DNA of 64,000 nt from Artocarpus heterophyllus. Its lineage: Eukaryota > Streptophyta > Magnoliopsida > Rosales > Moraceae. The stretch is from assembly GCA_025403435.1 (NCBI GenBank), contig CM046351.1, positions 27,803,730-27,867,729 on the forward strand. Direction: 5' to 3'. Below are positions 4,587 to 50,575 of the stretch, piece after piece. The first letter of the stretch is position 1. Each line of letters opens with the position of its first letter. Under the pieces are notes generated by a model. The model worked only from the letters and a program-made list of their open reading frames with translations, did no database searches and was not told the DNA's origin. The translations under genes were made by a program, and so were the position numbers.

Positions 4587-4785
4587 TCAGCAAGCCGAAC
4601 TTGGGACTTCGGCAGGCCAAACATGATCGGCAGGCTGGAGTTCCTCAACCGACAGGCCGGCAAAGGCTTTGCAAAACTGGCTTAAAAAAAAACTTGTCAT
4701 CGTTCGGTAGATCAAATATGTGATCGGCAGGCCGAACCTTCAAACATCGGCAGGCTGAGCAATAATGTTCGGCAGGCCGACCGAG
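4587..4785. repeat. Palindrome array in unit B (one end)
   Basis: Eight degenerate copies of TTCGGC-NN-GCCGAA. The TCGGC-equivalent positions start near 4587, 4609, 4627, 4649, 4704, 4724, 4747 and 4769, mostly 18-23 bp apart. Equivalent arrays occur in unit A and in Copia-2. Confidence 0.85.
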
Positions 4786-4800
4786 CCAAAATCCTTGAGA

Positions 4801-6957
4801 AAACTTAATTTGTAAAATAGATTTAACTTTTCATAAAAATACGGAAGGTCAAAATTCTTTAAAATGGTAAAATAAAATATAAAACCATAGTTCATGTATT
4901 CTTAAATCTTAATCATAAAAATATGTTCAAATATAAAACTTGATTTAAAACATAAAACATTCTTCTTGGCATTCTTTCGGTTACAATTCATCGTGCTTAA
5001 TGCTCACACGCCTTCCCATGTCCTCCACCTATTCCATGATTTTCTTACCCTTATCTACAACATGACATAAAACTTGATTAAGCTAATGCTTAGTAAGTAC
5101 ATATAATTCTCATAATTAAAAACATTTCATATACATCATTATCATCACCATATCATAGAAGTGCCTTAAGCACAATTTCATAGAAACATATCTTTCATTA
5201 CATTGACCATATTAAAACTTATTCCATTTTATCTTAAGGGCCCAAGTGTTGCACCATAAACATCATCATAGGTGCGCCGTCATGAGAAGAGAATGGTAGC
5301 TAATCCAAAACCAAACATGACATCATAACATATCAGAGCATAACATTGGTGTGCAACACTTATTAGGTGATTCATATATATACATAATTTTCATGCTTTG
5401 AAGCATGTCATCATCATACATGCATAATTTTAAATCATGAAAATCTTTCATAAGAAATCCTTTAAGGAAAATAACCATGAAATCATAATGAATATCATTG
5501 TGAACATATCATCAAACCTTATAAAACGTGTCATGTTGTAGGTGTGAATGTACTTACCTTAACGGCTAGCTTACTTAACCTTGATAAGATTTGGTGACGA
5601 CACTGCGGTCTCGAAGTGCTCGTTCCTTTGTGTGTTCACGCCATTTATCCATTAAAAATATAATAGAATTAACACTTATCATAAAACCTCCATTCATATA
5701 CCATCACATATAAATTCATCTTAATACAAACATAATTCATAACCATAATTGTCAAAACATAAAATTATCATCACATATACATTCATCTCATATAAACATT
5801 ATTCATAACATGCTTCCTTAAGTATTATCATCAAAACATCTCATACATTACAAACATGAAAATCTTTTAAAAACATTTTCTCACAATTAAAATACATATA
5901 ATTTTTAATTTTAAATTCATACAAACGTCTTATTATCATACATTTCAATATCATAAAATTATTTCATAATCAATAAAATCACTTAAACATATAAAACATT
6001 TCATAAAATGAAAATTCAAAATAATAATGTTAAAACAGTTTTCTTGACCTATTCTCATAAAAATTTCATAACATAGAATACATCCATCAAAATATTACCA
6101 AACTTTGCAGTCTATATCATAACATATACATGAACATTCTTGTCATCTTTCATGAAAAACAAAACACATTTACCCCTTAAAATAAAATAAAAAATACTTT
6201 TTCATACATCATAGTCAAACAGTAATATTTTACTGTGAATGGTAGAGGAGAGAAAATTTCATATTTCATCATAGAAACATCGAAATACCATGAAACTTGA
6301 AGAAACATCACATAACACATACATGCATAACATATTAAAAAAATTCATAACAAAATACAATACCTAGAGAAAGATATTGCAGACGAATTAAGGAGGAGAA
6401 ATGCTTTTCAGAAACGTCAAAAGAAATGAATTCTTACCTTAACAATTTTCTTCTCAAAATTCTTGAATTCAACCAACGAAATATAACTTTTTCTTTCAAT
6501 ATTTGCAGAAAATTTTTGAGAGAAAGAAGGATGAAATTCGTGGAGAAGAGAAGGAGAAGAGATGAAGGAGAAAACGTCTTAGAAATTGAGAAAGAGAAGG
6601 CGTCAGAGGATGAGAGAAAAATAGAAAAAGAACGTTAAAAATTTTTAACGTAATGGGCATAACTGATGAAAATTCAATACCCTCTATTAAGTCAGAATTT
6701 TCTGACTAATTGATGGCTAATTGGCATGGAGGAAGGAAAGCAAGGAGGGAAAGTCAAAACTATTAGTCTCACTTGCCATATTTTGCCCTCTAAAAATAAG
6801 AAACCATTCAAAATAATATAAATCAATGCGAAGTCAAACATTTTATTTCCTTAACGGACAAAATTATTCCATTATTATGCCAATTAATCACCCAATTAAC
6901 GTAATTATCTCAGCCATAAATTTGGAGAGATTTCTGCTGACTGCTCATCAGCTGTCT
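4801..6957. other. Body of LTR-like unit B, no gene
   Basis: AT-rich sequence of the unit. Short open frames here (for example 6426-6638) have degenerate counterparts in unit A without conserved coding and are not supported as genes. The segment 5235-5660 matches, in reverse complement, 20330-20750 of unit A. Confidence 0.7.
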
Positions 6958-7072
6958 TCGGCCTACCAGTTCCACCAAGTTCAGCCTGTCAATGGTTCCC
7001 ATCGGCCTGCCGATCTTTGGCAGCCTTTTCAGCCTGCTGAACTTAAAAGTTTGGCCTACCGAACTATCTTTA
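6958..7072. repeat. Palindrome array in unit B (other end)
   Basis: Degenerate TCGGCCTGCCGA-type units start near 6958, 6981, 7002, 7029 and 7051, mostly 21-27 bp apart. The array ends about 45 bp before the CACTA insertion. Confidence 0.8.
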
Positions 7073-7116
7073 AATGCCATACATTAAAACATTCAAGTCA
7101 TGATTACATCATAATT

Positions 7117-7465
7117 CACTACAACAATTGTATGATTTAGCGGCTAAAATTTTAGCGACGACATTTTGTCGTCGTTAAATTATTTTTCAGCAACGATATT
7201 GTCGTCGTTAAATCTGTGCAAAATTTTTTTTTTTTGCTTGTGTAATAAAATATTTAGAGACGATATTTGACGTCGTTTATTATATTTAGCAACGACTTAA
7301 TCGTCGCTGAATATGTGCAAAAATTTCGTTGCTGAATTTCCGAAACACGCGCCATAAATTCGCGGTATTCGCATATTAAGCGACGATAAATGTCGTCGTG
7401 GAATCCTAATACGTTGTTGTTTTGGTAAGAATATATTTGGAGACGACATATGTCATCGCTAAAAG
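7117..7465. repeat. CACTA 5' terminal and subterminal repeats
   Basis: After the CACTACAA terminus there are repeated motifs of the form AGCGACGACATTTTGTCGTCG and its variants (near 7154, 7190, 7260, 7289, 7380, 7441), in both orientations. In CACTA elements such subterminal arrays are the TNPA binding sites. Confidence 0.85.
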
Positions 7466-10400
7466 AGAATACATATTCCCAAAACCCAGCTTTCCCCTCA
7501 CCCGCTTCTGAGCTCAGAAAATTTCAGCCTCTTCATCTCGTCTGAGAAGGATTCGATCGTCTCTCCGTTTTCAAGGCTCTCTCTCATCGAAATTTTTTTG
7601 AAACAACACTTTGCAACCCGTACGATCCCCGCCGGAGCTAGACGGTGTCGTTGGCAGGATTGTTGCTGTTTTGCACGCCGGAGATTCGTTGTCGCCGCAA
7701 CAGGTGTTAGGGTTTTTCTTTTTTTTTGTTCAACTTTCCTAGCTTGATTTCCTCTGAGATTTGTTTGGGCAGTTTGAAAATCTTTTTGTCTGTGGACATT
7801 TGCGGTTTGAGATTTCCTCTGAGACTCTCTCTCTCTATTTTTGACACCAATTTTTCCGACACTAACACCTTGCGACCCGTAGGATCCCTGCCGGAGGTAG
7901 ACAGTGTCGTTGACCAGATTGTTGATGTTTTCCACGCCGAATTTCAACTGTCGCCGCACCTGGTAAGTTTTTTTTTTTTTTTTTTTTGTTATACTTTCCA
8001 CACCGATTCAATTGGAGCAATATGTTTATATAAAATATGAGGTAGACTAACACCTTACTCACTTTTTCATTATTGGAAGCACCAATTTCAATTTCAATTT
8101 TCTTTTTTAGCGTCGTGCGCTGTTTGAATTTTTAATGCAATTTATCTTTATCCAGTATTAACTTCAGCCAGAGTTATTGGATACAAACAGAAGCTGAGCG
8201 TCGTGTTTTGATGTTGTATTATTATTATTATTTGCCTTCTGCTGCTGCGTATTTGTGACTGCCATTTTGATTTGATATTACCGCTTTTCAAAAATTTTGG
8301 TTGGCTTGTGCAATTTGGTTCCCTTATGTGTTCATAAAACAAGTAATCTTCTCTCGGTTTGTGCGTGTAGAAAGAATCGCCACTTGGGTTGCCTACGGAG
8401 TCCGCTCATCCTGGTAGATGTTTCAACTTAAAGTGCTTGAATTTTTCTTTCCCCTTTCTTCATTAGTACATGAATTGTATTCTTAGTTACTTTATTGGAG
8501 CATATCATAAATTAATGCTGTCTTTGTGACGGTTAATGGACTTCTAGGTTTAAACTATTGGGTCATCTTGTTCAATAATGACAGTTACCAAGTATAAATT
8601 ATGCACATCTTCGAGCATATCTGATGTGAATTTCAGGTTTCTCATCTGAAATCTAAACCGAATTTTTTCACAAAGCTTCCTTTTTTTATAGCATTATAGA
8701 TTCGTCATTTTGAAACTTACTCACTGCTGAATTTTTCTTGTTTTTACCAAAGTTTATGGTGGTTTTTCCAATTCTACCGTAATGCTCAGTTTTTCTATGA
8801 GGCACTAGTTTATTAAGGGTTGATTAAGGGTTTTAAATTAGAAATTGATGAAAATGTGCATAACAAGCTTTGTTTTGTCTAAAAACAACACGTTTCAAAG
8901 TTCAAAGGTAAATAAAGAGAAATATTATAATTCAAGGATAGAACATCTAAAGTTCGAGGAAACATATTGATACAAATGACATAATTTAGGAGGATTTCGT
9001 AAAATTTGTCCCTTTTTTTCTTTCCATATGAGAGACGAGAAATAATACAACTGAGATAAGTCCATTTCATGGGTTGGAAAAGTTGTGGTCTACACTAAAT
9101 AGCTTTTGTCATCTTGATGTGTCTGATAGCTACTTCTGATAATGAAAAACCTACCTTGTAGATGAGGGACCAGTATATGTTTTTGCCCCTTTAAACACCC
9201 ACTGAGTAGGAAGAGGACCACACCAACTTTTCCCCCCGCAGAGATATATGCATGCAGCAAAATTTAGACTTCTAAACCAAACAACTTATCAGAGTTGTAA
9301 TGGGAATAACTATTTTCAAAACCGGGAGTCATTAAAAACCAAGTCGAAGATAAATACCAGATCCGTATACCAATTTCTTTTCTTTCTCATCTTTGAAAAA
9401 GAAAAGGAAAAAAAAAAGAAAAGAAAGAAAGATACCCAACATAATTAATACAATGCTTGTAGTACTATAGCCTTTCTTTACTCTTTAGGCCGTTCAGTTA
9501 AGTTTGTAATGAGATGTGTAGGACTGCTGGGCTGGCTATACAGCATTAAAACCCTAGCTCTATATATATATGTAGCAGTGTGTTATTGCTTGAAAAGGGT
9601 TTTGCTTCTGCTTAATTATTTGCTTCATGACTGACAAGATGTATACTTATATTCATCAAAAAGCTGTTTCCTTATATTATCTTATTGGTGTGTTGCTGAC
9701 CTTTAGAAATAAGGTAAAGCTTCCAAAGCCAGATAGCTAATATCTAGACTATATATAATAGCAGAAAAAATTGACTTGTGCCTGTACTTGTCGAACGAAT
9801 AAATATGGTAATTAAGTACTAGTTGAATTCAAGTTTGCATTTTATTTTGCAAGGTGAAGAAGGTAAACAAATATATTTATAAATGCATGTACGGATACAT
9901 GCATAAACAGCTTAATTATTGATTTGTTATCTTATTTGAATGGTCTGTGCGAGGATTTAAGACTTAGACGCCCGAATTCTTTGTGTTTGACAATGCAGGT
10001 CGCCCTTACCAAGAGACAGTGTTTGTTGTTGTTGTTAGCTGGTTCTTTGTCACATTTCTTCTTCGATCACTTAGGTGAGGTAATTTTCTTTAAGCAAAAC
10101 CGGATTATTGATGCTTTTGTATCTAAAACTAAGTTGACAAGTGAAACTAATTCAGGGGCTTTCTACTGGCAAGAGAGTTAGGACTTGAAATAAGAAAATT
10201 AGTTTGAGGAGTAACTCTCTTCTCATCTTCTATATTCTTTGCTTTTCATTGTTTTCTGGGGACAACTAAGTTTTTCTAGGCTTGTACTAGCGATTTTCCT
10301 TGAATAGTCGTTCAGCTTCAGCGTTTGATTGAACAGCCATATTATGTTGCAATTAAGGTCTACGTTCTCCTTAGGATTAACTATGTAATAACTTTTTAGA

Positions 10401-10828
10401 CGCAAGTGGAATTATTTAGAATTCAATAATCTTCTTGTAACCAATTTTTGGATTGGAGTAGCGTGCCACTTTAATGACTTGCCGGATATATGAGACAAGA
10501 ATTTGCTGTTAAAGAGACAAAAGCCTTAAATGCATGAATATTGAATGGATGATTAATTGCTTATTCTTTCGTGGTCTTGTATATAGCAAACACTACGGCA
10601 GGTCATGAATTGCTTAGAAATTTGACATGCTATTATTTCTATCATTCTCATCGTGTGAAGTTTTTAACCGCATGAATTACAATTTGTTTAATCATCTAAT
10701 TTTTTTGCCATGCCTTTTGCTTAGTTTGTATTATGTAACGCAATATTGTGTAACTATATTTGTTTAGTAGAAAATTTTCCATATTTATGAGTTATATTGC
10801 ATTTGACAATAGGATTGAAAACATCAAT
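7466..10828. other. CACTA 5' untranslated region, no coding gene seen
   Basis: A 3.4-kb stretch between the 5' subterminal repeats and the transposase start. I see no conserved protein frame. A GC-richer leader of about 100 bp is duplicated at 7606-7703 and 7865-7963, and each copy is followed by a plausible splice donor (AG|GTGTTA, TG|GTAAGT). This may be an untranslated leader with introns. A ten-base pyrimidine/purine-rich run lies near 9395-9430. Confidence 0.6.
7606..7963 (+). repeat. Duplicated leader segment in the CACTA element
   Basis: Two copies of about 99 bp (7606-7703 and 7865-7963) share ACCCGTA-GATCCC-GCCGGAG-TAGAC, GTGTCGTTG and TGTCGCCGCA blocks and are separated by about 160 bp. 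They have diverged by point changes. Each ends at a candidate splice donor, which suggests alternative 5' leader exons. Confidence 0.7.
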
Positions 10829-13800
10829 ATGACGATTGACAAGAGTTGGATTTTTGAAAATGATCGCTTTTTTGATCGATACTGGAATGATGCAATGGCA
10901 TTTTTGGAAAGAGCAAAGAACTACATGAATAAGGATGGGTTTGTTAGTTGTCCATGCATTAATTGTTTGAATGTAACAATGCAAACATTACCAGTGGTTG
11001 AAGCTCATATAATTGACAAGGGATTTAGTCGAACATATACTACATGGATATACCATGGAGAATCTTATAATGCGAACATTAATGGTTATGAAACACATGA
11101 ACAATCTACTGACGAGATGCGAAATGTCTTAGATGATGTAGTGGGGGCCAACAATCATGTCGAACCAGAAGAGTCAAGTCCAACCGGAAAATACAATTCT
11201 GGGCAGTTTGAAAAACTTTTTGTTGAGCTTGAGGCAGAGTTGTATCCTGGATGCGAAAACTTTTCATCTCTTGATTTTTTAGTAAAATTGATGCATTTAA
11301 AGGTGCTTCATAGATGGACCAACAAATCGTTTGACTCTTTGTTAAAGCTTTTAAAGGAGGCATTACCAGGGGGGAATAATATTCCTGCTTCACATTATGA
11401 GGCCAAGATGAAGTTAAGGAAGTTGGGTTTAGGTTACGAGACAATTCATGTGTGCAAGTACGATTGTGCTTTATTTTGGAAAGAATATGCTGATAGAAAC
11501 ACTTGCCCTATATGTGGTGAGAGTCGATGGGTGAATCCAAACACAAAGAGAAAAAGAGTGCCACATAAAGTATTACGATATTTCCCTTTAAAGGATCGGT
11601 TGAAGGGTTTGTATGCGTCAAGACATACTGCAAGAGATATGAGATGGCATGGTTTTGGTCAATCTACGCAAGGCGTTTTGCAACATCCAGTAGATGGAGA
11701 GGCATGGAAGGCATTTGATCGTAGGTATCCTGATTTTGCTTCCGAAGTAAGAAATGTTCGTTTAGGTTTAACAACTGATGGGTTTAGTCCGTTTGGAAAT
11801 ATGAGTCAACCTTATAGTATGTGGCCAGTTATCTTCTCAACATATAATCTACCTCCATGGCTTTGTACAAAGGAACCATACTTGATGTTGACTTTGTTGA
11901 TTCCGGGACCTAATGCTCCTGCAAAGGATATAGATGTGTTTTTGAGACCAATTGTAGATGAGTTGAAAGAGCTTTGGGAGCATGGATTGGTAATTCATGA
12001 TGCCTACGCTAATGCATCATTTAGGATGCATGTTGCGTTGTTGTGGACTATCAATGATTTTCCTGCTCGAAGTAGTTTGCCTGGTTGGAGTGGCCAGGGA
12101 TACAACGCATGTCCAACATGCAACATGCATACTCCTTCTAAGCGTTTAAGGAGTAAGATGTGTTATATAGGCCATCGACGATTCCTTCCAACTTCAAATA
12201 TCATGAGGAGAGACAAACAATTTGATGGTACGGTTGAGAAAAGACCCCCGCCTCCACGCTTGGCTACAATTGAAATATTAAATCAGTTGGAACGTGTGCA
12301 ACGTAGATTACCAGGCAAGCACATTGATTTTGGAGGCAAAAAACGTAGGCGAGAACCTAATGAGTTAAACTGGACGAAAAAGAGTATATTTTTTGAATTG
12401 GAATATTGGTCAGATTTGTTGCTAAAACACAACTTAGATGTCATGCATATTGAGAAGAACGTCTGTGATAGCTTGTTGGGCACAATATTGAATATTGATG
12501 GGAAGTCAAAGGACACAGACAAAGCAAGAATGGATCTAGCTGACATGCAAATAAGGAATGAATTGCATCTTTACAAGGATGGGGATCGATGGATGAAACC
12601 TCATGCAGACTACACTTTAACTCCTATAGAACGGAAACAATTTGGTTCCTTTATTAAATCCGTTAAGTTTCCTGATGGGTTTGCGGCAAATTTGAAAAAG
12701 AACGTTGATGCTGATGGTAAGATCACTGGACTTAAATCGCACGATTGTCATGTCATCATGCAACGTCTTTTGCCGGTCGGTATTCGTCCATTTCTGAAGA
12801 AAGAGATCACTAATACAATTACTGAACTTTGTTATTTTTTTCAACAAATTTGTTCTAGAACCCTAAAGATCTCTGATTTAGAGAAAGCTGAAGACGAAAT
12901 TGTCATAATATTATGCAAGTTGGAAAGAATATTTCCGCCCGCATTTTTCGATATAATGGTTCACTTGGCTTTGCATTTGTCGGAAGAAGCCATGCAAGGG
13001 GGTCCTGTTCATACAAGGTGGATGTACCCTTTCGAGCGGTATATTGGGTCACTTAAGCAGTATGTCAGAAATCGAGCACGACCGGAAGGATCAATTGCAG
13101 AAGCTTATGTTGTAAAGGAGGCATTGACTTTTTGTTCACGTTACTTTCATGGTATCGAAACTAAATTCAATCGGCCTGAAAGGAACCTGCCTAATCATGA
13201 TTCTGCTCCAAAGAAAATGATATCGGTCTTCCAATCACAATGTCGACCAATGGGAAAGATTGTAGCAACTCATTTAAATGAGCAATTAAGGAAGAAGGCC
13301 GAGTGGTATATTTTAAACAATTGCCAAGAGATCCGAAGATACATAGAGTAAGTTTAACTCTTTAATTGTTCACTTTCTAGTATGTAGTATAACATAAATT
13401 TTATGACACCCATTTCATTTATAGGGAACACATGCGTGAGCTTGAAATTACTGGTAGAAGAAACCTGAATAAGGTTCAGATTGATGAATTTCCGACGTGG
13501 TTTTACAAAAAGGTAAAAAAAACTTTTAATCTTTCTAGGCGAAAAATCATATTTAAAGATTTAGTAACAATAATAATTTTCTCATTGTAGGTGTACCATT
13601 TACGGAAAAATCATTCACCGGAGGCGACTGAAGAATTGCTCGCCTTGGCGTCTGGTCCCAATGACACTGCACTATCATACTCTGCTTGTGTGGTAAATGG
13701 GGTCAAGTTTGTGTGCAACAATCGTGATGTTCAACGAAAAACACAAAATAGTGGGGTTTCTGTACCTGGTGTTGATGACAACATATATTACGGTCGGCTA

Positions 13801-14370
13801 GAAGATGTATTGGTACTTCGATATATGAATGATTGTTCGGTTGTGTTGTTTAAGTGTAAATGGTTTGACGCAGATCCAAGAAAGAAAAGAATCTTAAATA
13901 ATAAAAACTTCACGAGTGTGTTTGTTAATGCCGAGGCTTATAAAGATGATCCCTTTATATTATCATCACAAGCAAAACAAGTGTTTTATCTTGAAGATCA
14001 ACTTAATGGCCCTAATTGGAAAGTGGTCCAACAGTTTGGGCATCGACATGTGTGGAATCTTCCTGACATCGAACAAGAAGATTCTAGTTTAGTTGAGGTG
14101 CTACAAGATGATTATTCAAATTTTGAACTTGTAGTTGAGCTACCCAATTTGGAGTCAATAACATTTAGAAGAAATGATGTTGATCCTAATGTCGTTGAGA
14201 ATGCAACATTAATCGAAGTGGGTCATGGAAATGATGGCATTGAGGTTGACCTTGAGATGGATGATACTTTACCGGAGTACGACGATGATACAAGCACAGA
14301 AAATGAAGATGAAGACGAGGATACCAGTTTTGAACAAACTGAGAACGAGAGTACTAGTGATGATGAATAA
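10829..14370 (+). CDS. CACTA TNP2-type transposase
   Basis: Catalyses excision and integration of the CACTA element in the nucleus. Three exons are inferred: 10829-13347, 13425-13512 and 13591-14370, all with GT...AG introns and preserved frame, giving about 1,128 aa. Domain order is: N-terminal transposase-associated zinc-binding domain (CPCINC, HGE; residues about 1-80); TNP2 core (CPICGESRW near 230, TTDGFSPFG near 315, DVFLRPIVDELKELW near 370, MHIEKNVCDSLLGT near 540); DUF4218 region (FGSFIKSVKFPDG to RTRWMYPFERYIG-like motif, about 610-790); and DUF4216-like C-terminus (YYGRLEDVLVLRY in exon 3) with an acidic tail. The conserved acidic residues are present. I saw no premature stop. The start was chosen because the domain begins at MTIDKSW; an in-frame ATG at 10760 is less likely and follows a possible intron. 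Confidence 0.9.
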
Positions 14371-14485
14371 TGTACTTATAAATTTAACTTGTTTCCATTA
14401 CTTCTAGTTCTCATTGAACTTCCTTTTTATATTAAGTTTTTTAATAAATAATGTCTAAGAAAGTTGTTTGCAATAGGTGATTAGA

Positions 14486-16158: not shown

Positions 16159-16349
16159 TTTCTATTTTTATGATTCAGACTTGTTGACTTAATGTACATA
16201 TAACCGTATTGTCTATACAGTTATATTTTATTTATATTAAACTTTTTTAGTTATTACATATGTCTGTGACTTGGTAGTTATTTGCTTACAGGGTTTATTA
16301 TGGTCAGGGATGAAATTTTGGGGATGTTGGTTAAAAAAAAAAAAAATCA

Positions 16350-16759
16350 TTCACAGCGACGACAATTGTCGTCTCTAATTATACAGCGACGTCATTTGTC
16401 GTCGCTGATATTAGAAACGACTAATTATTAAAAAAAAAAATTATTCACAGCGACGACAATTGTCGTCTCTAATTATACAGCGACGTCATTTGTCGTCGCT
16501 GTTATTTGAAACGACTAATTATATAGCGACGACAACGTCGTCGCTATAATTTGTTGCGATTAACCAAACATAATTAGCGACGACAACGTCGTCGCTATAA
16601 TTAGCGACGACTAAATGGTCGTCGGTAAATATTTTTAGTTACCATGTGTTAGCGACGACAATTATCCACGAAAATATCGTCGCTTAAAAATATTAGAGAC
16701 GACTGATTTTATCTTAGCGACGACAAATGTCGTCTCCAAATGGTCTTCTTCTTGTAGTG
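16350..16759. repeat. CACTA 3' subterminal repeats and terminus
   Basis: Dense AGCGACGAC/GTCGTCGCT motifs end at TTGTAGTG. A 79-bp block (about 16350-16428) is repeated at about 16444-16521, with an A-run between the copies. The motifs match those of the 5' end in inverted orientation. Confidence 0.88.
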
Positions 16760-16964
16760 ATTAAACATACATTAAAATGAACATGAACACTTGAACACAT
16801 CGATTCCATGCGGTCATCACCTGTCATAGAACTTGAAATAAAAGTTAGTAACATTATAATCATAAATCATAACATATCATATAAATTATTAATAAAATTT
16901 TCTTAACGTTGTTACTAACTTTATCATGATCCATTACATAAAAATAGGTGGGTGTTACACCTCA

Positions 16965-18473: not shown

Positions 18474-18714
18474 CATGATGTAACACTCACCTATTTTATG
18501 TAACGGATAATGTTATATTGGTGACGACGTTAAGCATTTTATTCCATATTGATTTATGATATTATTGTCACTAACTATTTATTCTAAGTGTTATGACAGG
18601 TGACGATCATGTGAAATTGATGTGCTCAAGTGTTCATGCTATTTACATTGTATGTTTATTTATGATTCATTAATGATTTAAATGCTAAGATATATTCTTG
18701 TATGTAAAGACAGT

Positions 18715-18822
18715 TCGGCAGGCCAAACCTTCAAGTTTGGCAAGCTGAATTGTCCCTCAAGAATCGACACGCCAATGGAAATCATCGACAGGCCAGACTT
18801 AGTGAAATCAGCAAGCCGATGA
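18715..18822. repeat. Palindrome array in unit A (5' side)
   Basis: Degenerate TTCGGC-NN-GCCGAA units start near 18715, 18737, 18764, 18785 and 18808, that is 21-27 bp apart, about 240 bp inside the start of the unit. Confidence 0.8.
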
Positions 18823-21195
18823 CAGCTGACGAGTAGTCAGCAGAAATCTCCTAAAATTGTGACGATGGTGATTGGATAATGATTATTGATTGATTGGCAT
18901 ATTTTAGGATTGATTTCCTCATTTAAAGAAATAAAACCCTTGACTTTTGATTGATTGGATTTAATTGATGAAGTTTCCTCCTTTGAAAAGGTAAAATATG
19001 GCAAGTAAACAATGATTTGTTGACTTTCCCAAATCCTCTCCTTCCTCCATGCCAATTAGCCAACTTTTAATCAGAAAATTTCTGATAATAACGGTAAAGA
19101 CAAGCATGCTCATGTACGTTACTCTCATTTTCCCTTTTCACGATAATTTTGTTCTCTCTCTCTTAGACGTTTCCTCTCTAGCCCACTCTCTCTCCTCTTC
19201 ATGTACTTCTTTGTCTCCCTCCCAAATTTCCCTACTAATTATTTGAAAGAAAAATTGAAAATTTTGTTGGTTGAACTGAAGGAGTTTTGAGAAGAAATTT
19301 GTTACGGTAAGAACTTTTTTTCGGTGTTTCTGAAATGCATTTCTCCTGCTTAATCCGACTGTCATAACTTTATCTAGGAATTTTATTTTATTTTGAAATT
19401 TTAGTATGATGTTCATATATGTATTATGTAATGTTTCTCCAAGTTTCTGTTATTTTGACTTTTCTACATTAAGGTATGAATTTTCTACCCTCTGCCACTC
19501 ACAGTAAAATGATGCTATTTTATTATATTGCTCAAAAATGTGGTTTTGATTCAAGGGGAAAATATGCTTTGATTTTTACGAAATTTGGCAATATGTTCAT
19601 GTATATGTTATGTTATGGACTGGAAAGTTTGGTGATGATTTGATGAATATTTTATGTAATATGGAATTTTATTTGAAGCTAGGTTTTTAGACTGTTTTTA
19701 TCTGTAAATTGTTGAACTCTTATTGTGTGATGTTTTGTATGATTAAATGATTTTATTGATGACTAGAATTTTTGAGGTACTGTATTTAAGTGTTAATACG
19801 ATGTCATAAGAATTTTGAGACTTAAATAAATTTTTTTTTATTGTTTGAAAATGATGAACTCATGTAACTCACTGCTTAATATGATGGAAGTTAGTTTTAT
19901 TATTGATTTCAAATGTGTGTTTTGACCCACTCCAATTTTTGTTGAAGCCAATTTTTGGATATGTTATAGTTTTATATGTCTATTATATGTGTTAATTTTT
20001 GTAGATTTTTCTATGATGTCAAAATGTGATTAATGGACCTGAGTTTAAAGTTGTTCACTGCCTATCTGTTGCTGGCAGATTTAGTGTCATGAAATATGTG
20101 ATTTATTTATATTGCTAAATGGAATTATTATGACTAATGAAAAATCATGGTGATACATTTATGTGGTAACTTTGTCCCTGCCAAGTTTAGACCTTGAATT
20201 CTGTGTGAATGTAAAGTTATTAAGCTATGAATTCATAGAGGTCAGTAAGCATTTGTGATGATATATGGTAATGGTAATTGCATGTTGTGATGAATAATTC
20301 TTTGAATTAAATATTAATTTTTATTTTTAATGAATGTATGATAGAAACACACTAAGGGCGAGCACATCGAGACCGCGGCGTCATCACCTACAAAATTAAG
20401 GTTAAGTAAGCTTCACAGGTAAGTACATTCTCACCTGCAACATGATATATTTTATAAGGTTTGAAATTATGTTCATGATGATATCTATGATGATTTTATG
20501 ATGATTTCATTTAAAGATTTCTTATGAAAGATTTTTATGTTCAAAAGTTATGCATGTATGATAATGACGTATTTCAAAGCATGAAAGTTATATATGACTA
20601 TATATGTATCACCTAAATAAGCATTGCACACTAATGTTATGTTATGATATGTTATGATGTCATGTTTGGTTTAGGATTAGGTACTCTTCTCCTCTCATGA
20701 CGACGTGCCTACAATGATGATTATGGTGCAACACTTAGGCCCTTAAGATAAAATGGAATAAGTTTTAATTTGATTAATGTTATGAAAGATATGTTCCTTA
20801 TGAAATTTGTGCCTAGTGCATTATTATGTTGATGATGATGTTGTTGTCCATAAAATGTTTTAAGTTGTGAGAAATGAAATGTACTTACTAAGCTTTAGTT
20901 TATTCAGTTTATATCATGTTGTAGATAAGGATAAGAAGGTTATGGACTAGGCGAAGGGCGTGGAAAGGCATGTGAACTAAGCAGGATGAATTGTAATCGG
21001 AAGAACGCCAAAGAAGCAAGTTTTATGATTTAAACTATGATTTACAATTTGAACATGTTTATTTGTTAAGTTTTTAAAGAAAGCACAAACTATGTTTTAT
21101 TATTTTACTTTATTCTTATTAAGTAAATGATCGTCCGCATATTGAAGTATTCAATCTTGTTTTTAAATTAGATTTCTAACATTTTTTTTTATCGG

Positions 21196-21345
21196 TCGGC
21201 CTGCCGAACAATGATGATTGGCCTGCCGATCTTAGCAAAGTTTAGAACCCTGTTTTGTAGAGCCTCGCGAGGCTTGCCGGTGGATGAACTCTGGCCTGCC
21301 AATCCAGTTCGGCCTGCCGAAGTAACAGGTTCGGCCTGTCGAATC
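21196..21345. repeat. Palindrome array in unit A (3' side)
   Basis: TCGGCCTGCCGA-type units start near 21196, 21218, 21269, 21291, 21309 and 21331. They are about 22 bp apart or a multiple of it, with one 18-bp step, and lie about 325 bp before the end of the unit. Confidence 0.85.
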
Positions 21346-21675
21346 GAGAATGAAGATTTTTTTTAAAAGATGATTTAAAATTCACAGTTTGAATTAAAAA
21401 TGTTGTGACATTTTATTTTAAATTATGACTTTTTTAATTGGTATATTTTATTTACTAAGAAGGTTTATGAATTTTTATTATTATTATGGATTAAGTTATT
21501 GAATGTAAAAAAAAAAAAATTGCATGGATCCTGGGTATGATTTCTTAATTATGTTATCAATTAACTTTTATGTTTTCAAATTGTCTTTTATAAAATAGTT
21601 TATCCTAAAATAAAAGTATGTAAGGAATGAATGTAACGACATCTGTAACGTCCGTAAGGGGGGCACTACACATGA

Positions 21676-22124: not shown

Positions 22125-22125
22125 G

Positions 22126-24092: not shown

Positions 24093-24108
24093 GCTCTCCC
24101 CTCCTATA
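24093..24108 (-). other. Chromovirus polypurine tract
   Basis: On the minus strand TATAGGAGGGGAGAGC directly precedes the 3' LTR, the expected site and composition of the plus-strand primer. Confidence 0.8.
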
Positions 24109-39836: not shown

Positions 39837-40059
39837 GTTAAGGCTAACTTATTCTAACGGTGTGTATACGTATGCAAACCTGCAGAAGACGGAGATGAGG
39901 ATGGTGCGTCAAGGGCCTATAGTGGAGGACGTAGATCCGTAACTCGAAGAAGAGATCACCAAGACAGAACCAGCTTAAGACCATGCAAAGGTAAGGGTGG
40001 ATGAAAAGATTCATCAAGGGTATTAAAAATAGGGTTAGAGTTAAGCAAGATGTAAGCAA

Positions 40060-42321: not shown

Positions 42322-44354
42322 TGTTGGAAACAAAGTGCGCAGCGGAATTTTAAAAATTTTTCATCAGAGTATTTTCCAAAACACAAGTTTGACATGTTAT
42401 ATGTATAAATTAAACAGATCTTACTAACCTCAGTATGCCGAAGAACCTCCGCGACCTGTGTAGAGAAGTAACGTTCCAGAAGAGCCTCAACCAACTGGTC
42501 TTCTTTGCTATTCTCTATCCACAACCGGAGTGAGTGTGGGCTCACACGTACAGCTCTTCCACCGGTGACTCTCCTTCCAACCAATAGAGAGAACCCAAAG
42601 CTAGTGTTCGTGATTTGTGAACAAAAGCTCTCAGGGAGTTTTTAGATGCTCACTAGAAGAGTATCACTCTTAATCTCTCAAATTGATCTGAGTAAATCAT
42701 TAGACTCACTCCCTTTTTATACCTATTGGTCCTTGGGGTCAGTCCATATCAGATTAGGTCTCAAAAATCGAAATAGAATCAAGTTCGGATCAATATCTGA
42801 TAAGATACGCGTGAAAAACGCGTAATCTTAGCTGTCGCGGTCGGCATGCCGAACTGTGAGATAGGCAGGCCGAACTGGTCAGTTCGGCAGGCCGAACACG
42901 TCATCCGGCATGCCGAACTGCCGAGAAAAAATCTCCGTGAATCTTTTATTTTCCACCCGAGATTCTAAAGGATAAAGTCTCAGTTTTGATTCAAATAGCC
43001 CAATAGAAAAGATATCTGATCAAAACAAACTTTATCAAGATAATCTCTAAGAAAATAAATCAATTCACAATAATTCTACAAGTTTATCTTGTTCTAATTG
43101 TCCAAAATTAAAACAACCGATAAACAGACAAGAATTATCCGAACGCCATAATTCAACAAGTTCATCTTGAACTAATTTCTTACATAATTAATTCAACCGA
43201 TAAACAGACATGAATTATTTGATTCTTATAAATTTTAAACCAATCTGATAAATCCGACATAAGTCACCAATTATTGGAAAAGCACGCCGTGTCGTTACAG
43301 GATTTTGTGAGCTAGCAAAGGGGACCAAAATGGACCTATAAAGTTCAAGCTCATGATAACTATGAAACCCAATATCCCAGATATACATTTCACAATTATC
43401 AACTCCAACGCTACTCCACTAAAAGCTTGGAGCTGCACTCTCGAACTTTATAGAATTACGAAGCTCGAGTAGCTAAGTCTCCATGACATATCATAGTGTA
43501 TCGCATCCCCATATGATCATCCATAATCGGCTTAAGGACAAGTTCTGTCTTACCTTCCCGATTATTTTTATCTTACGTTCCATTGTCTCACCATTAGAAA
43601 ACTTACCATCCAAAGATAGTATACCATTCGGTTACACCTATGTATCCAAATGGTTGAGCGCTCCAGTTTTCCAATTACAGGACAACGCATATAAGAGGAT
43701 ATCATTACTCCTAAAGAGGAGCTATGGATTCCATATCTATGAATAACAAGTCTACGCTACCAAGAGTCATGCCTCCAACGTACCGGCATGCATGCCACTA
43801 TAGAGATGTGGGAGTCACCCATTGGTACATCAAAAGACACAAGTCGAGACAACGGGCCCATTATTCATCTCAGGATTAAGATACAATACAAATGATTGTC
43901 TAAAGTGAATCCATTTGACAAGACAGAATTATTAATCCAAATCAATTCACTTTATGTCCCGATCCAACACATCGTCACCTATGACAATGCGCCAATGTTT
44001 CTATTCACGGAGTCCAACTCCGATGGCCAAGACAAACCATCTCCCAAAAGGGATATAGACAACATAACAATCTTTACATGAATAAAGCGCCCAACTTTAT
44101 TCCCTCGATTGCGGATCATATATTTTAGACCATCACCTTAAGAGTCGTGTCTACCGCATAATCATCCCATCATATGCCCAACTCTTAAGGTTTAGACTGA
44201 CAGTCTCAGACTACTGTTTGCTTATCATACATTCAACAAATATGAACGTAAAGAGGACAATATTTGGTATATATAAATGAATAAATTCTTTATTGATAAA
44301 AATGTCTCCAAAAACGTATTACATTTTTACTCCTTAGAGCATACATGTCTAACA
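42322..44354 (-). repeat. Copia-2 3' LTR
   Basis: 2,033 bp with TGTTGGAAACAAAG and CATGTCTAACA ends. It contains the palindrome array at 42841-42917 and a TATA box at 42711-42721. Open frames such as 43483-43746 recur in the other LTR and are not genes. Confidence 0.95.
42841..42918. repeat. Palindrome array in Copia-2 3' LTR
   Basis: Four units of TTCGGC-NN-GCCGAA start near 42841, 42862, 42884 and 42905, spaced 21-22 bp. On the minus strand the array lies about 120 bp upstream of the TATA box. Confidence 0.9.
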
Positions 44355-44366
44355 ATCTCCCACTTG
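44355..44366 (-). other. Copia-2 polypurine tract
   Basis: On the minus strand CAAGTGGGAGAT directly precedes the 3' LTR, three bases beyond the stop codon of gag-pol. Confidence 0.8.
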
Positions 44367-44368
44367 CA

Positions 44369-47300
44369 CTAAGTGAGTAAATACTGCAAATTTCGCATCC
44401 CCATAGCTTCCACATGCCTTTCGAAGACTCTCCCAGAAAGTGTCTTCGTAAATGGATCAGCTAAATTGTCCTCTGACGCGATCTTGCATACCGTGACATG
44501 CCCGCTCTCAACGAAGTCCTTTATCACATGATACTTCCGATCAATATGCTTACTCTTCTTGTGAAATCTTGGTTCCTTAGCATTAGCTACCGCCGCACTG
44601 TTATCACAGTACAGTGATACCGCTTTATCCATACCAGGAACTACCTCAAGATCCCCAAGGAACTTGCGGAGCCACACTGCTTCTTTCGAAGCATCACTAG
44701 CCGCCACATACTCGGCCTCCATCGTTGAATCCGAAGTGCAATCTTGCTTCGCACTTCTCCAACTGATGGCACCGCCACCCAGAGTAAACACAAACCCTGA
44801 AGTCGATTTCCTAGAATCCAGGCAGGATTGAAAATCCGAATCAGTGTATCCTAGAGGAGTTAAATCCTCACCCGAATACACAAGCATATACTCACGAGTC
44901 CTTCTCAGGTACTTGAAAATATGCTTTACCGCAACCCAATGGTTTGGTCCTGGATCCGCCTGAAATCGACTCACAATCCCGACCGCATAGCTAATATCTG
45001 GTCGAGTGCAAAGCATGGCATACATGAGACTACCTACTGCCGAAGCATAAGGCACCTTCTTCATGTATTCTCTTTCTTCATAAGACTTTGGAGAGTCTTT
45101 CTTAGAAAGAGTAATTCCAGACCTAGATGGTTGCCCACCTTTCTTGGAATCCTGCATTGCAAACCTCCTGAGAATTTTATCTATGTACCCGGCCTGTGAC
45201 AAAGCTATCATTTTGTTCTTCCTATCCTGAAAGATCTGGATACCGAGAACAAAATTAGCCTCACCCAAGTCCTTCATGTCAAACTGCTTGGTCAACCATA
45301 ATTTGACCGATGACAATGCCCCAACGTCATTGCCAATTAGCAGAATGTCATCTACATAGAGTAGTAGAAAAACCACCTTCCCATTCTTAATGTGTTTGTA
45401 AACACATGGTTCATCCACATTTTGTGAGAACCCATAAGTCTTGATCACTTGATCAAATCTTATGTTCCAAGAACGAGAAGCTTGCTTAAGTCCATAAATA
45501 GACTTTAGCAACTTACAAACCTTACCCTCTTGACCCGTGACCTTGAACCCGTCTGGTTGTTCCATATAAATGGACTCATCAAGATAGCCATTCAGAAAAG
45601 CCGTCTTGACATCCATCTGCCAAATCTCGTAGTCGAGAGCGGCAGCTATGGACAAGAGTATCCGGATGGACTTAAGCATGGCTACAGGCGAAAAGGTTTC
45701 CTCATAATCGATTCCTTCCTTTTGCGTATAACCCTTAGCTACCAGTCTAGCCTTAAAGGTTTCGACCTTTCCATCCACTCCTCTTTTCCTCTTGTAGATC
45801 CACTTACACCCTATGGGTTTTACCCCTTCGGGAAGATCCACAAGCTTCCAGACCCGATTAGTCTCCATAGACTTCATCTCAATGTTCATGGCCTCTGTCC
45901 AGAGTCTTGAATCAACATCCTCCATAGCTTCTGCGTAAGTATAAGGATCCCTGTCATGTTCATCCGGTTCAGCCAAAAAGACCTCCCCATTGAACATATA
46001 CCTCTCAGGTTGACGCCCGATCCTCCCACTACGCCGAAGCCCCTGAGGTTGTTGTTCAGGTTTGTTTGGTTTTTCTACACCGATCGGAATGGTTTCGTTC
46101 GGAACCTCTGGAGTAAACGGATTACCCCTCAACTCCTCAAGCACCACTTTGCTTTGAGGTTTAAAGTCGTTCATGTAACTCTCCTCAAGGAAAGTTGCAT
46201 TAGTTGAAACCACGACTTTATTTTCCTTTGGGTTATAAAAATAACCCCCTTTAGTCCCTTTTGGATATCCTACAAACACGCAAACTTCTGAACGTGCTTC
46301 CAACTTATTCGGATCCTTAAACAGGACATGAGCTGGACATCCCTATATGCGAATATGGTTTAAGGATGTCTTCCGTCTTGTCCACAACTCGTGAGGAGTT
46401 TTAGGGACCGATTTTGAAGGCACATTGTTCAAAAGATAACATGCGGTTTGTAGTGCATATCCCCAAAAGGATAAAGGCAATGATGAATAACTCATCATGG
46501 ACCGAATCATGTCCAACAAAGTCCTATTCCTTCTCTCTGCTACGCCATTCTGCTGCGGAGTACCCGGCGCAGTCAAATGGGATAAAATCCCATTCTCTAA
46601 CAAGTGTCCCAAGAACTCATCAGAAAGGTATTCCCCACCTCGATCAGATCGAAGTGCCTTTATGGGTCTACCCAATTGCTTTTCCACTTCAGCCCGAAAC
46701 TCCCTGAACTTATCATAAGTTTCGCTTTTGTGGTGCATTAGGTACACATACCCATATCTTGAGTAATCGTCAATAAAAGTAACGAAGTACTCATACCCTC
46801 CTCGTGCCCGGATGTTCATCGGTCCGCAAACATCACTATGCACAAGTTCTAGAACCCCTTCGGCCCTATTGCCCTTAGACCCGTATGGTCTTTTGGTCAT
46901 TTTACCCTCCAAACAAGACTCACATTGAGGTATAGATTCCACCTTTAAGTGACTTAAAGGTCCATCCCTTACCAACCTTTGAATCCTATTTAGGTTAATA
47001 TGGCCAAGGCGCAAATGCCAAAGATAAGTCTTATTAGAGTGAGAAGTTTTAAGTCTTTTTGAGTTATTATCATTTATCTCAGCATTAAGCAACAAGTCCA
47101 TCTTAGGTTTGATAAAATATAGATTATTTTGCATCCATCCAGAACAGATAAAAGATTTGTTTTTACGAATCACCACTTTTTCATTAAAAGATACCACGTA
47201 GGAGTCTTTAAATAAAGAAGATACAGAAATTAAATTCCTTTTAAATTTAGGAACATAAAAACAATCTCGCAAAATTAAACTCCTATAATTATCAAAATAA

Positions 47301-48322
47301 AGATGGACATCTCCCACTGCTTCCGCTGAGACCAAGGATCCATCGCCCATCCGAAGCGTTAAGTCTTCACGAAGTAGACTTCTCGTTTCTTTGAATCCCT
47401 GCAGAGAAACACAAACATGATTAGTTGCACCAGAATCTATGACCCAAATGTCACTGGATTCCTCAACCAAACAAGTTTCTAAATATAGAAGATCACACCT
47501 ACCTCCCTTGGAAAGGAAGTCCTTGCAATGCTTCTTTATATGCCCGACCTTACCACAAAAGAAGCACTTAAGCTTCTTTGGGTTCTTCTTCTTCTTCTTC
47601 TTGCTCTTGGTAGCAATAGGAATAGAAGACTTCCCACTCTTGGCCCGTTGTTTCTTTCCATTCCCAGAGTTAGGATTGGAACCAGAAGCAGCTACCATAT
47701 TGGCCTCTCCACCAGCAGGAGACTCCCTGATCAGCAGTTCAAACTCTTGTAACTGTTTCATCAGTTCTGTCAAGGTCATATCCCGTCTATTGCTTAGATT
47801 AAAAGTAGCTCTAAACGGAATAAATTCCTTAGACAGAGTCTCAAAGACCATAGTCATCTGAGTTTCAGCATCGATGTCGGCTCCATTGGTTTGAGCCTCA
47901 GCCAGGTAACCCATGACCAACATCATGTGCTCCTTTACAGATGTCCCCGGTCTCTGTCTACAGTTTAAGAGTTTCCGAAGCGCCCCTTGCCGCTTTGTTA
48001 TGGCCTGGCCTCCAAACATGTCCTCAAGATTATCCAAGATCTGCTTCGCAGTCTCATAATCCTGATGTTGAGCCTGCAGCACGTTATTCATGCTAGCCAT
48101 AACATAGCAGCGGGCCTGATCATTAGCATCTTTCCAGCGTTCGTACGCTTGGAATTGCTCATTACTTGAGTCTCCCGTAGGTTCGGGAGGACAAGGAGTT
48201 GTCAGAACATATTTCAGTTTCTCAAAGGAAAGGACGATGTCCAGGTTCCGTTTCCAATCATTATAGTTCTCACCGGTCAATTGGTTTTTGTCAAGTATCG
48301 ATGATAAAGCGTTTTTAGACAT
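44369..48322 (-). pseudogene. Copia-2 gag-pol polyprotein with one in-frame stop
   Basis: A continuous minus-strand frame of about 1,317 codons with one TAG at 46342-46340 (codon about 661), just after the integrase core, where the family normally has a tryptophan. Domains: UBN2-type gag (about 10-200); Lys-rich stretch and CCHC knuckle [14 protein letters not shown] (253-266); protease [15 protein letters not shown]-pre-integrase ([18 protein letters not shown]); integrase core ([40 protein letters not shown]); RT ([24 protein letters not shown] near 990); RNase H ([25 protein letters not shown]). Start taken at MSKNAL (48322), where the gag family begins; 24 upstream in-frame residues look like leader. 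A protein ending at the stop would hold gag, protease and most of integrase but no RT. Confidence 0.94.
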
Positions 48323-48472
48323 TTTCAATCTACAATAAAGAATCATATACCAAACATAAGCAAACATATATAATAATTTAGTAAGATAACACAATCATGT
48401 AAATTATACAAATGTGTTTATGTGTCAAAACCTTGAAAATATCACAACCTTACAACGATAATTCCCAACTCA

Positions 48473-48882: not shown

Positions 48883-49290
48883 ATTTTAAAATTATGCATG
48901 AACAATTTTAATATGAGCGGCACTCCCTATTCTATATGACATGTTATCAATATACATGGTAAATCATATTATAATGCAGACAAGCAAAGCAATCAAGCAA
49001 AGCTACAAGCATAATAATAATAACCGTAATATTATGGTTCCACCCTAGAGAATAGAAAAAATAAGATTACAAGAGAATAATCGAGACATTTATCGATTCT
49101 TCATCCTTGAATCCTCAAGCCGTATCCTTCTTCATGTAATATCCATCTTCAAGTCCTCAATCCCGTATGAATCGAACACTTCATATTTCCGGTCATATCC
49201 AAATTTAATGTTTCTCAGAATCGTCCCAAAAATAAAATTAAAACTGCACTGAAAAAATCGCACCTTTTCTGGACACCTGGCAGCTCTCGG

Positions 49291-49471
49291 TCGGCAGGCC
49301 GATCTGGGTGATCGGTCTGCCGATCATGGTGGTTCGGCCTGCCGAACATGAAGGTTCGGCCTGCCGGCAGAGCACCAAAATTTCTGCCCCACTGTCGGCC
49401 TGCCGGACCATGCGTCCGGCCTGCCGATCTGTGACCTTCGGCCTGCCGAACTGTGAGGTCCGGCATGCCGA
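49291..49471. repeat. Palindrome array in the Copia-2 leader
   Basis: Eight units of TTCGGCCTGCCGAA or close variants start at 49291, 49311, 49333, 49355, 49395, 49415, 49437 and 49459. The steps are 20, 22, 22, 40, 20, 22 and 22 bp. One step is a double interval, as if one unit were lost. Confidence 0.92.
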
Positions 49472-49963
49472 CCGAGCAGAAAACCCTCAATCCAGAAAAT
49501 ACAATTTTAATGCAATTCATCAATTTTATTTTCAACAATTCAAAAACATAAAATTAGAGACTCAGGAAATACCTGGAGGCGCCATCATCTATCTTCAAGA
49601 TCCGACTTCTCGTTCCGTCTTCTCCGAATAATTATTTAATTACAAAATTCTTACAAATTAAATAATAATTCCTAGACGGAGATGATAGTCCGCCATCTAA
49701 TTACATGAAAAACCTAGATACACATTCTAACCTCTAAGGAACCATAACCGGTATTGATTAATTAATAAATAATTAAACAACAATTTAATCAACCATAATT
49801 AATTAATAAACATTCACCATATAATCCATGACAACATATATATTATATAGAAACCTAGAGTGCCATCTCTCTATAAAATTTAATTCAAGCATTGGAGAGA
49901 TTAAGATCACAAAATTTATGCATATAACATGATCACAAACTTGCAAATTTATGTAAAAACCTC

Positions 49964-49976
49964 GGCTCTGATACCA
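49964..49976 (-). other. Copia-2 primer-binding site
   Basis: TGGTATCAGAGCC on the minus strand, complementary to initiator tRNA-Met, two bases inside the 5' LTR. Confidence 0.93.
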
Positions 49977-50367
49977 ATTGTTGGAAACAAAGTGCGCAGC
50001 GGAATTTTAAAAATTTTTCATCAGAGTATTTTCCAAAACACAAGTTTGACATGTTATATGTATAAATTAAACAGATCTTACTAACCTCAGTATGCCGAAG
50101 AACCTCCGCGACCTGTGTAGAGAAGTAACGTTCCAGAAGAGCCTCAACCAACTGGTCTTCTTTGCTATTCTCTATCCACAACCGGAGTGAGTGTGGGCTC
50201 ACACGTACAGCTCTTCCACCGGTGACTCTCCTTCCAACCAATAGAGAGAACCCAAAGCTAGTGTTCGTGATTTGTGAACAAAAGCTCTCAGGGAGTTTTT
50301 AGATGCTCACTAGAAGAGTATCACTCTTAATCTCTCAAATTGATCTGAGTAAATCATTAGACTCACT

Positions 50368-50378
50368 CCCTTTTTATA
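50368..50378 (-). promoter_or_regulatory. Copia-2 TATA box
   Basis: TATAAAAAGGG on the minus strand in the 5' LTR, about 1.63 kb into the LTR and 120 bp downstream of the palindrome array. It leaves about 370 bp for R-U5. Confidence 0.75.
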
Positions 50379-50497
50379 CCTATTGGTCCTTGGGGTCAGT
50401 CCATATCAGATTAGGTCTCAAAAATCGAAATAGAATCAAGTTCGGATCAATATCTGATAAGATACGCGTGAAAAACGCGTAATCTTAGCTGTCGCGG

Positions 50498-50575
50498 TCG
50501 GCATGCCGAACTGTGAGATAGGCAGGCCGAACTGGTCAGTTCGGCAGGCCGAACACGTCATCCGGCATGCCGAAC
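50498..50575. repeat. Palindrome array in Copia-2 5' LTR
   Basis: Same four units as in the 3' LTR, offset by 7,657 bp. The array sits upstream of the promoter of this copy. Confidence 0.9.

What the first reader, a model, noticed from the sequence alone, without database searches (positions are those of the whole stretch)
4587..50575. A 14-bp palindrome in 21-22-bp spaced arrays shared by unrelated retrotransposon families
Arrays of TTCGGC-NN-GCCGAA occur seven times: 4587-4785, 6958-7072, 18715-18822, 21196-21345, 42841-42918, 49291-49471 and 50498-50575. The unit spacing clusters at 20-23 bp, about two helical turns, with occasional 18, 27 or doubled steps. The carriers are a Gypsy-like LTR family and a Copia element, which are not related over the rest of their sequence. 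The chromovirus, CACTA and Tat elements lack the array. In Copia-2 the LTR array is about 120 bp upstream of the TATA box, an enhancer-like position. Same-face spacing of a dyad suggests cooperative binding of a dimeric host protein; GCCGA half-sites recall ERF/DREB-type cores (speculative). Alternatives are a shared captured satellite, or sites for chromatin or methylation control.
Basis: partly seen in the sequence, partly recalled or inferred. Interest (0 to 1): 0.8.

Follow-up and report, generated by a model that had tools for sequence, protein, structure and literature searches.

The report
Palindrome arrays in unrelated plant retrotransposons
Two unrelated kinds of jumping gene in a plant carry rows of the same short mirror-image DNA word, evenly spaced, probably landing sites for a plant protein that switches them on or off; such rows are already known from another group of plant jumping genes, so this widens a known pattern and is not a new one.

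Summary
All 27 sites within two mismatches of TTCGGCNNGCCGAA in the 64 kb lie in the seven stated arrays; shuffled windows average 0.7 such sites. The seven are four independent arrays: an outer and an inner one in two related ~3 kb solo LTRs ("family G"), and one in the LTR (two near-identical copies) and one in the 5' leader of a young Copia. Outside the arrays the families share only short weak hits. In each carrier the palindrome is conserved and the flanking spacers are near random (median column identity 0.92 versus 0.27 in Copia). This argues against a plain satellite and for selection on the dyad. The closest known thing is the Sirevirus "repeated motif" (CGG-CCG palindromes in CpG-rich clusters upstream of the TATA box; PMC2829016), there called Sirevirus-specific. 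This Copia lacks the Sirevirus linker and exact PPT; family G is another family. I read the arrays as Sirevirus-type cis-regulatory arrays for a dimeric host factor, found outside Sireviruses. The binding protein is unknown. No host-genome test was possible: the genome search did not complete 15 of 15 times. New variant of a known kind.

The parts
4277..7116 (+). family G solo LTR copy L, first part (TGTAATACCCCC...; target duplication CCTCA at 4272-4276); interrupted by a CACTA at 7117
   Evidence: ends, CCTCA on both sides; alignment to copy R
16763..16959 (+). family G copy L, second part after the CACTA (...GGGTGTTACA, then CCTCA at 16960-16964)
   Evidence: 16762-16959 matches 18658-18479 inverted
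18479..21670 (-). family G solo LTR copy R (TGTAGTGCCCCCC...GTGTTACA; target duplication TCATG on both sides)
4586..4781 (+). outer array of copy L, 6 units used (a seventh, weaker 8/12 site dropped), AG centre in LTR sense
6957..7063 (-). inner array of copy L, 5 units, orientation opposite to the outer array
18714..18820 (+). inner array of copy R, 5 units
21195..21343 (-). outer array of copy R, 5 units
49979..52011 (-). Copia 5' LTR (2033 bp; TSD ACTAT; TGTTAG...CCAACA)
42322..44354 (-). Copia 3' LTR, 99.85% identical to the 5' LTR
50497..50574 (.). Copia 5' LTR array, 4 units at 21/22/21 bp, LTR positions about 1438-1515
42840..42917 (.). same array in the Copia 3' LTR
50372..50378 (-). 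TATA-like box (TATAAAA, first base 50378) about 120 bp downstream of the LTR array
49290..49472 (-). Copia leader array, 8 units in two groups of 4 (22/22/21, gap 39, 22/22/21), between PBS and gag
44369..48394 (-). Copia gag-pol reading frames (two open frames; gag, integrase, RVT_2 domains)

Best explanation
The arrays are cis-regulatory arrays of the Sirevirus 'repeated motif' type, here carried by LTR elements that are not, or not known to be, Sireviruses. Each 14-16-bp dyad, roughly (G)WTCGGC-AG-GCCGAA(C), is bound by a dimer of a host DNA-binding protein. Dimers stack on nearly one face of the helix (steps of 21-22 bp) upstream of the promoter; a second array lies further downstream (Copia leader, family G inner array). 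Shown: the arrays, their places, dyad conservation against free spacers, and the excess of C>T/G>A changes in the dead copies. Inferred: that a protein binds, that it is a host protein, that it acts on transcription, and that both families use the same one.
For: Enrichment and exclusive clustering. Median column identity, dyad versus flanking spacer: Copia 0.92/0.27 (p=3.2e-5), G_L 0.67/0.28 (p=4.3e-6), G_R 0.72/0.27 (p=4.7e-6). Between G_L and G_R, transversions hit 4 of 142 aligned dyad positions, 27 of 135 array-spacer positions (p=4e-6) and 290 of 2094 flank positions (p=2.8e-5) (counts, tests; a further class of 322 positions with 67 transversions was left out of the test). Inner dyad changes in the dead G copies are 25 of 29 C>T or G>A, versus 1 of 7 in the young Copia (L and R may share some changes by descent). 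LTR array about 120 bp upstream of TATA. 9.7-11.5 CpG per 100 bp in the Copia arrays versus 2.3 in the window. Same signature and place upstream of TATA as Sirevirus motifs in PMC2829016 (Table 3 and sections 9-11).
Against: No binding, expression, methylation or small-RNA data. Regular spacing could be left over from tandem duplication. Units were picked by dyad match (>=8 of 12), which inflates dyad identity, and aligners anchor on repeated dyads. Total L/R identity of dyads (0.80) is hardly higher than that of the best flank (0.79) because dyads lost many bases by transition. In family G the one TATA-like site conserved between copies, in the part scanned, is about 740 bp downstream of the outer array (5520), a weak link to a promoter. 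Steps of 18, 27 and 39 bp break strict helical phase. The Copia leader array lies downstream of the promoter.
Confidence: 0.6

Rival explanations
1. One array module (satellite or captured promoter piece) arose once and was copied between families, for instance by template switching or nested insertion; the sharing is by descent and need not be functional in each carrier.
For: Same dyad, same usual AG centre (G 17 of 21 units, Copia 8 of 12) and consistent orientation within arrays. Upstream spacers match across families more than shuffled ones (mean 2.40 of 8 against 1.92; 4 pairs with >=6 of 8 against 0.89, p=0.016), and for copy R the excess lies at -8..-3 (p=0.008). Best pair 7 of 8 (CCTTCATG in Copia leader, CCTTCAAG in G_R; such a maximum p=0.065). 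End units read GCCGACCG, or its reverse complement, at both ends of the Copia leader array, one end of the Copia LTR array and one end of the G outer array in both copies. Maize has one palindrome in both Copia and Helitron elements (PMC10760457, passages).
Against: Spacers among units of one carrier are near random, so no recent satellite. Spacer positions -8..-3 do not exceed the null for copy L (p=0.34), nor +3..+8 for either copy (p=0.26, 0.70) (p values not corrected for the number of tests). Outside the arrays the 30 best hits of a permissive comparison include only short weak ones (best E about 7e-4).
Confidence: 0.25
2. The arrays act in RNA: palindromes in the leader and 3' U3 fold or pair for dimerisation, packaging or end-to-end cyclisation of genomic RNA, or form hairpins that feed small RNAs and methylation.
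For: Leader array RNA folds at -120.6 kcal/mol, z=-7.1 against shuffles. Copia LTR and leader arrays are in inverted orientation to each other (82-bp match, 78%), and so are the outer and inner arrays of G. Per PMC10760457 (passages), small RNAs map in excess to palindrome clusters of maize Sireviruses.
Against: With dyads kept and the rest shuffled the leader fold is only z=-1.7 (its halves -1.9 each) and the Copia LTR z=-0.5; more only for the G inner arrays (-2.3, -2.4). So most of the folding follows from the dyads alone. The Copia LTR array lies upstream of the TATA, so it enters the transcript only at the 3' end.
Confidence: 0.12
3. Anti-silencing or chromatin-control sites (in the manner of VANC motifs or an insulator array) rather than a plain enhancer.
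For: Arrays on both sides of the Copia promoter; clustered short motifs in non-coding parts. The analogies to VANC and to the Drosophila gypsy su(Hw) array are recalled, not tested.
Against: No candidate element-encoded binding protein seen: Pfam finds only gag-pol domains in the two Copia frames; family G has no internal region in the window.
Confidence: 0.1

Closest known systems
Sirevirus repeated motif (RM) with CGG-CCG signature (Bousios et al. 2010, PMC2829016)
   Same: Dyad-symmetric palindromes with CGG...CCG (12 of the 13 RMs in Table 3) in many copies, CpG-rich clusters, upstream of a TATA box in the LTR, often a second cluster inside the element. The Citrus RM AATCCGGCTWRCCGGATT has CGG and CCG separated by four bases, as here.
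   Different: The Copia carrier is not a Sirevirus by the linker test and family G is unclassified. The second cluster is in the 5' leader (Copia) or elsewhere in the LTR (G), not upstream of env. The LTR cluster is in the lower part of the Copia LTR. The paper states the RM is absent from classic Copia elements.
Maize Sirevirus palindrome CACCGGACNNNGTCCGGTG, also found in Helitrons (PMC10760457, passages; Bousios 2016 itself not held)
   Same: Palindrome clusters in LTR cis-regions; one palindrome shared across element types.
   Different: Different sequence and host; [quoted passage not shown]
Drosophila gypsy su(Hw) array (recalled, no call)
   Same: Array of one protein's sites in the transcribed leader of an LTR element.
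   Different: Different sequence and kingdom; insulator function untested here.

Membership tests
Sirevirus-type repeated motif (PMC2829016) | palindromic unit with CGG-CCG core | tested here: met
   Copia: CGG letters kept in 11, 12 and 12 of 12 units, CCG letters in 12, 12 and 12 of 12 (table); G arrays degraded mainly by C>T/G>A
Sirevirus-type repeated motif (PMC2829016) | at least eight copies per element | tested here: met
   Copia: 4 in each LTR and 8 in the leader; G: 11 used units in copy L, 10 in copy R
Sirevirus-type repeated motif (PMC2829016) | cluster upstream of the TATA box | tested here: met
   Copia LTR array about 120 bp upstream of TATAAAA at 50378; for G inconclusive
Sirevirus-type repeated motif (PMC2829016) | most LTR copies in the upper half of the LTR, starting 200-400 bp in | tested here: not met
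   Copia array at about 1438-1515 of 2033; G outer array begins about 310-330 bp in, but a second array lies near the 3' end
Sirevirus-type repeated motif (PMC2829016) | clusters define CpG islands | tested here: inconclusive
   CpG density about 3-5 times the window's in Copia and G outer arrays, 1.5-2 times in G inner arrays; CpGplot not run
Sirevirus (genus of Copia) | PPT AGGGGGAG close to the 3' LTR, several copies | tested here: not met
   AGTGGGAG, 2 bp before TGTTAG; no exact AGGGGGAG on either strand of the Copia. The place fits; the third-base change is one the paper reports as common in classic elements. Weak test alone: two Sireviruses also vary.
Sirevirus (genus of Copia) | long linker between pol and the 3' LTR (0.52 kb or more in the paper's Table 2) | tested here: not met
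   14 bp between the pol stop (44369-44371) and the LTR start (44354)
Sirevirus (genus of Copia) | LTR/PBS junction CA-ATTGG-TATCAGAGC | tested here: met
   CAACA|ATTGGTATCAGAGC at 49979/49978; the paper finds a semi-conserved version in some classic elements too
Ty3/Gypsy (family G) | gag-pol order, PBS, internal region | not testable with these tools
   both copies are solo LTRs with TG..CA ends and 5-bp target duplications; no internal region in the window
tandem satellite | whole repeat unit, spacer included, similar among units | tested here: not met
   spacer column identity median 0.27-0.28

The most novel reading that the evidence does not exclude
Unrelated LTR retrotransposon families in one plant lineage have converged on, or exchanged, arrays for one and the same host dimeric DNA-binding protein, with two arrays per element in opposite orientation, one upstream of and one beyond the start of transcription, so that one host factor controls a guild of unrelated elements.
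Probability: 0.3. Interest if true: 0.65.

Novelty: new variant of a known kind. Interest (0 to 1): 0.42.

Why it matters
If the dyad binds one host factor, it would give a single handle on how unrelated retrotransposons are switched on or silenced together, and show that the Sirevirus-type palindrome array is not confined to Sireviruses. It makes the old question of what those palindromes bind testable in a genome where two families share one motif.

Tried and rejected
Host-genome test of the motif: the genome search 'own' with TTCGGCNNGCCGAA was unanswered in 15 of 15 attempts, so frequency, spacing peak and carrier families genome-wide are unknown.

A scan of viral contigs for two neighbouring exact units gave 0 matches. 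A protein search with the open frame across the leader array found one match at E<=1 among 4 candidates, 98% identical, on a 2385-bp ENA contig: probably another close copy of the Copia leader, nothing more. A search with the Copia RT frame listed the best 120 of 7690 relatives; the named ones are mostly plant proteins, several called TNT 1-94-like. I drew no lineage from it.

First idea that 4277-21670 is one DNA transposon with long inverted repeats: rejected. The two arms are separate solo LTRs, each with its own 5-bp target duplication, both inserted in an older Copia whose pieces continue on either side (the outermost gag piece is weak, E=9e-4).

Sirevirus membership of the young Copia: rejected mainly on the linker, with the PPT sequence as a weaker sign. 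RNA folding as main function: weakened by the spacer-shuffle control.

Paper searches for earlier reports: (one search was malformed and not answered). No title or abstract start in those listings names this motif or such arrays in Moraceae. The library holds open-licence papers only; I opened three of the listed papers and not, for instance, the mulberry transposon papers.
Full report
OBSERVATION. The palindrome arrays are real. In 64 kb there are 5, 16, 27 and 42 sites at 0, <=1, <=2 and <=3 mismatches to TTCGGCNNGCCGAA; 100 dinucleotide shuffles give means of 0, 0.04, 0.68 and 8.97. TTCGGC is also the commonest exact 6-NN-6 dyad in the window (5, next best 3). Counting homologous arrays once and leaving out two gaps (39 bp in the Copia leader, 97 bp in the L outer array, where a weaker 8/12 site was dropped), 15 of 17 steps are 20-23 bp (steps); the exceptions are 18 and 27.

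CARRIERS. The seven arrays reduce to four. Family G is a ~3 kb LTR with two copies. L runs 4277-16959 with target duplication CCTCA and is interrupted by a CACTA element at 7117-16759 with its own ATT duplication. R runs 21670-18479 on the minus strand with target duplication TCATG. Each has an outer array about 310-330 bp from its start and an inner one about 240-250 bp from its end (CACTA not counted), in opposite orientation. Both copies sit inside one old Copia: the match to the gag-integrase frame breaks at residue 640 at 16974 and resumes at 645 at 4273, and pieces of that frame lie on both sides of R, the outer one weakly supported (E=9e-4). So L and R are solo LTRs, not the two ends of one element. 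"Gypsy-like" cannot be tested because no internal region is present. The second carrier is a young Copia on the minus strand: LTRs 49979-52011 and 42322-44354, 99.85% identical, target duplication ACTAT, with gag, integrase and RVT_2 domains. Its LTR array (4 units) lies about 120 bp upstream of TATAAAA at 50378; its second array (8 units in two groups of four) lies in the leader between the PBS and gag. A permissive comparison of Copia LTR plus leader with family G (30 best rows shown) gave array-to-array hits and a few short weak hits elsewhere (best of those E about 7e-4).

CONSERVATION. For the units used (L 11 of 12 sites at >=8/12 matches; R 10 of 10; Copia 12 of 12, one LTR plus leader) median column identity is 0.67, 0.72 and 0.92 in the dyad against 0.28, 0.27 and 0.27 in the 16 flanking columns. 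A plain minisatellite would diverge evenly over the unit. Caveat: units were chosen by dyad match, which inflates dyad identity; in the two Copia arrays, however, each step of about 22 bp inside a group holds a unit. The conserved site reaches one base beyond the dyad on each side in Copia (G at -1 in 10 of 12, C at +1 in 10 of 12), and the centre is usually AG (G 17 of 21, Copia 8 of 12). Between copies L and R, transversions hit 4 of 142 aligned dyad positions, 27 of 135 array-spacer positions and 290 of 2094 flank positions (Fisher p=4e-6 and 2.8e-5); a remaining class of 322 positions (67 transversions) was not in the test, and gapped positions were left out. Total identity is not so clear: dyads 0.80, array spacers 0.65, flanks 0.79 and 0.69, because dyads lost many bases by transition. 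Inner dyad changes are C>T or G>A in 25 of 29 cases in the dead G copies but 1 of 7 in Copia (some of the 29 may be shared by descent), the pattern expected of methylated CpG decay. An aligner anchors on repeated dyads, which also favours dyad identity.

DESCENT OR CONVERGENCE. Cross-family spacer matching exceeds shuffled spacers overall (upstream p=0.005 and 0.0007 for L and R; downstream 0.008 and 0.049). For L the excess sits next to the dyad (-2,-1 p=0.036; +1,+2 p=0.013; -8..-3 p=0.34; +3..+8 p=0.26). For R the upstream excess is further out (-8..-3 p=0.008; -2,-1 p=0.34) and the downstream one weak (+1,+2 p=0.059; +3..+8 p=0.70). None is corrected for the number of tests. The best spacer pair is 7 of 8 alike (a maximum reached with p=0.065), and end units share GCCGACCG. 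Old common descent with later dyad-only selection is therefore possible; a recent shared satellite is not supported. Outer and inner arrays of G, and LTR and leader arrays of Copia, are each inverted relative to one another, but with opposite polarity.

RNA. The leader array folds very stably (z=-7.1), and the LTR array as DNA too (z=-5.3). With dyads fixed and the rest shuffled, RNA z is -1.7 (leader), -0.5 (Copia LTR), -1.6 and -0.6 (G outer) and -2.3 and -2.4 (G inner). Folding is mostly a by-product of the dyads, with some residue in the G inner arrays. Leader and U3 pieces co-fold at -199.6 against a sum of -172.7 kcal/mol, without a control.

KNOWN WORK. Bousios et al. 2010 (PMC2829016; abstract, outline, sections 6, 9, 10, 12, 19 and passages read) describe repeated palindromic motifs in LTRs of 13 Sireviruses, 12 of them with a CGG-CCG signature, clustered in CpG islands upstream of TATA, with extra copies mostly upstream of env in the nine with that gene, and say they are absent from classic Copia elements. 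PMC10760457 (passages) reports the maize palindrome in Copia and Helitron elements and cites Bousios 2016 for small-RNA excess; that paper is not held. PMC11656987 (passages) links DREB1D-type sites to plant LTRs by machine learning; words beginning with 'palindrom' do not occur in it. The window's Copia has the PBS junction and a PPT in place but with a third-base change, and no linker (14 bp).

HOST. An LRR protein frame (34207-35382) is 85% identical over 85% of its length to a Morus notabilis polygalacturonase inhibitor and 75% to a Ficus carica protein, so the host is probably of the mulberry family (inference).

VERDICT. The arrays are best read as Sirevirus-type regulatory arrays in a non-Sirevirus Copia and an unclassified LTR family. 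The binding protein and its effect are inferred. The genome-wide test that would decide was not available.

Noticed in passing
2240-21986: Nested insertions: an old, broken Copia (minus strand) carries two independent solo LTRs of family G, one of which carries a CACTA with tnp2, DUF4218 and DUF4216 domains.
   Followed up: yes
7145-7326 and 16336-16750: Subterminal parts of the CACTA hold many GACGAC...GTCGTC palindromes (a 30-bp and 94-99-bp period), a separate dyad array of the kind CACTA proteins may bind (recalled).
   Followed up: no
49242-49631: An antisense open frame of 129 codons crosses the Copia leader array; one 98% match exists on a 2385-bp ENA contig. Probably not a gene.
   Followed up: partly
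4781, 21195, 49290, 49472, 50497: Units at these array ends read GCCGACCG (or reverse complement) in both families; no other unit listed does. Unexplained.
   Followed up: partly
34207-35382 and 58942-60072: Two LRR frames, the first polygalacturonase-inhibitor-like, in similar stretches (34143-35153 and 58877-59882, 78% alike).
   Followed up: no
43070-43218 and 50727-50875: An 80-bp direct duplication (83%) inside each Copia LTR, upstream of the array in the sense of the element.
   Followed up: no
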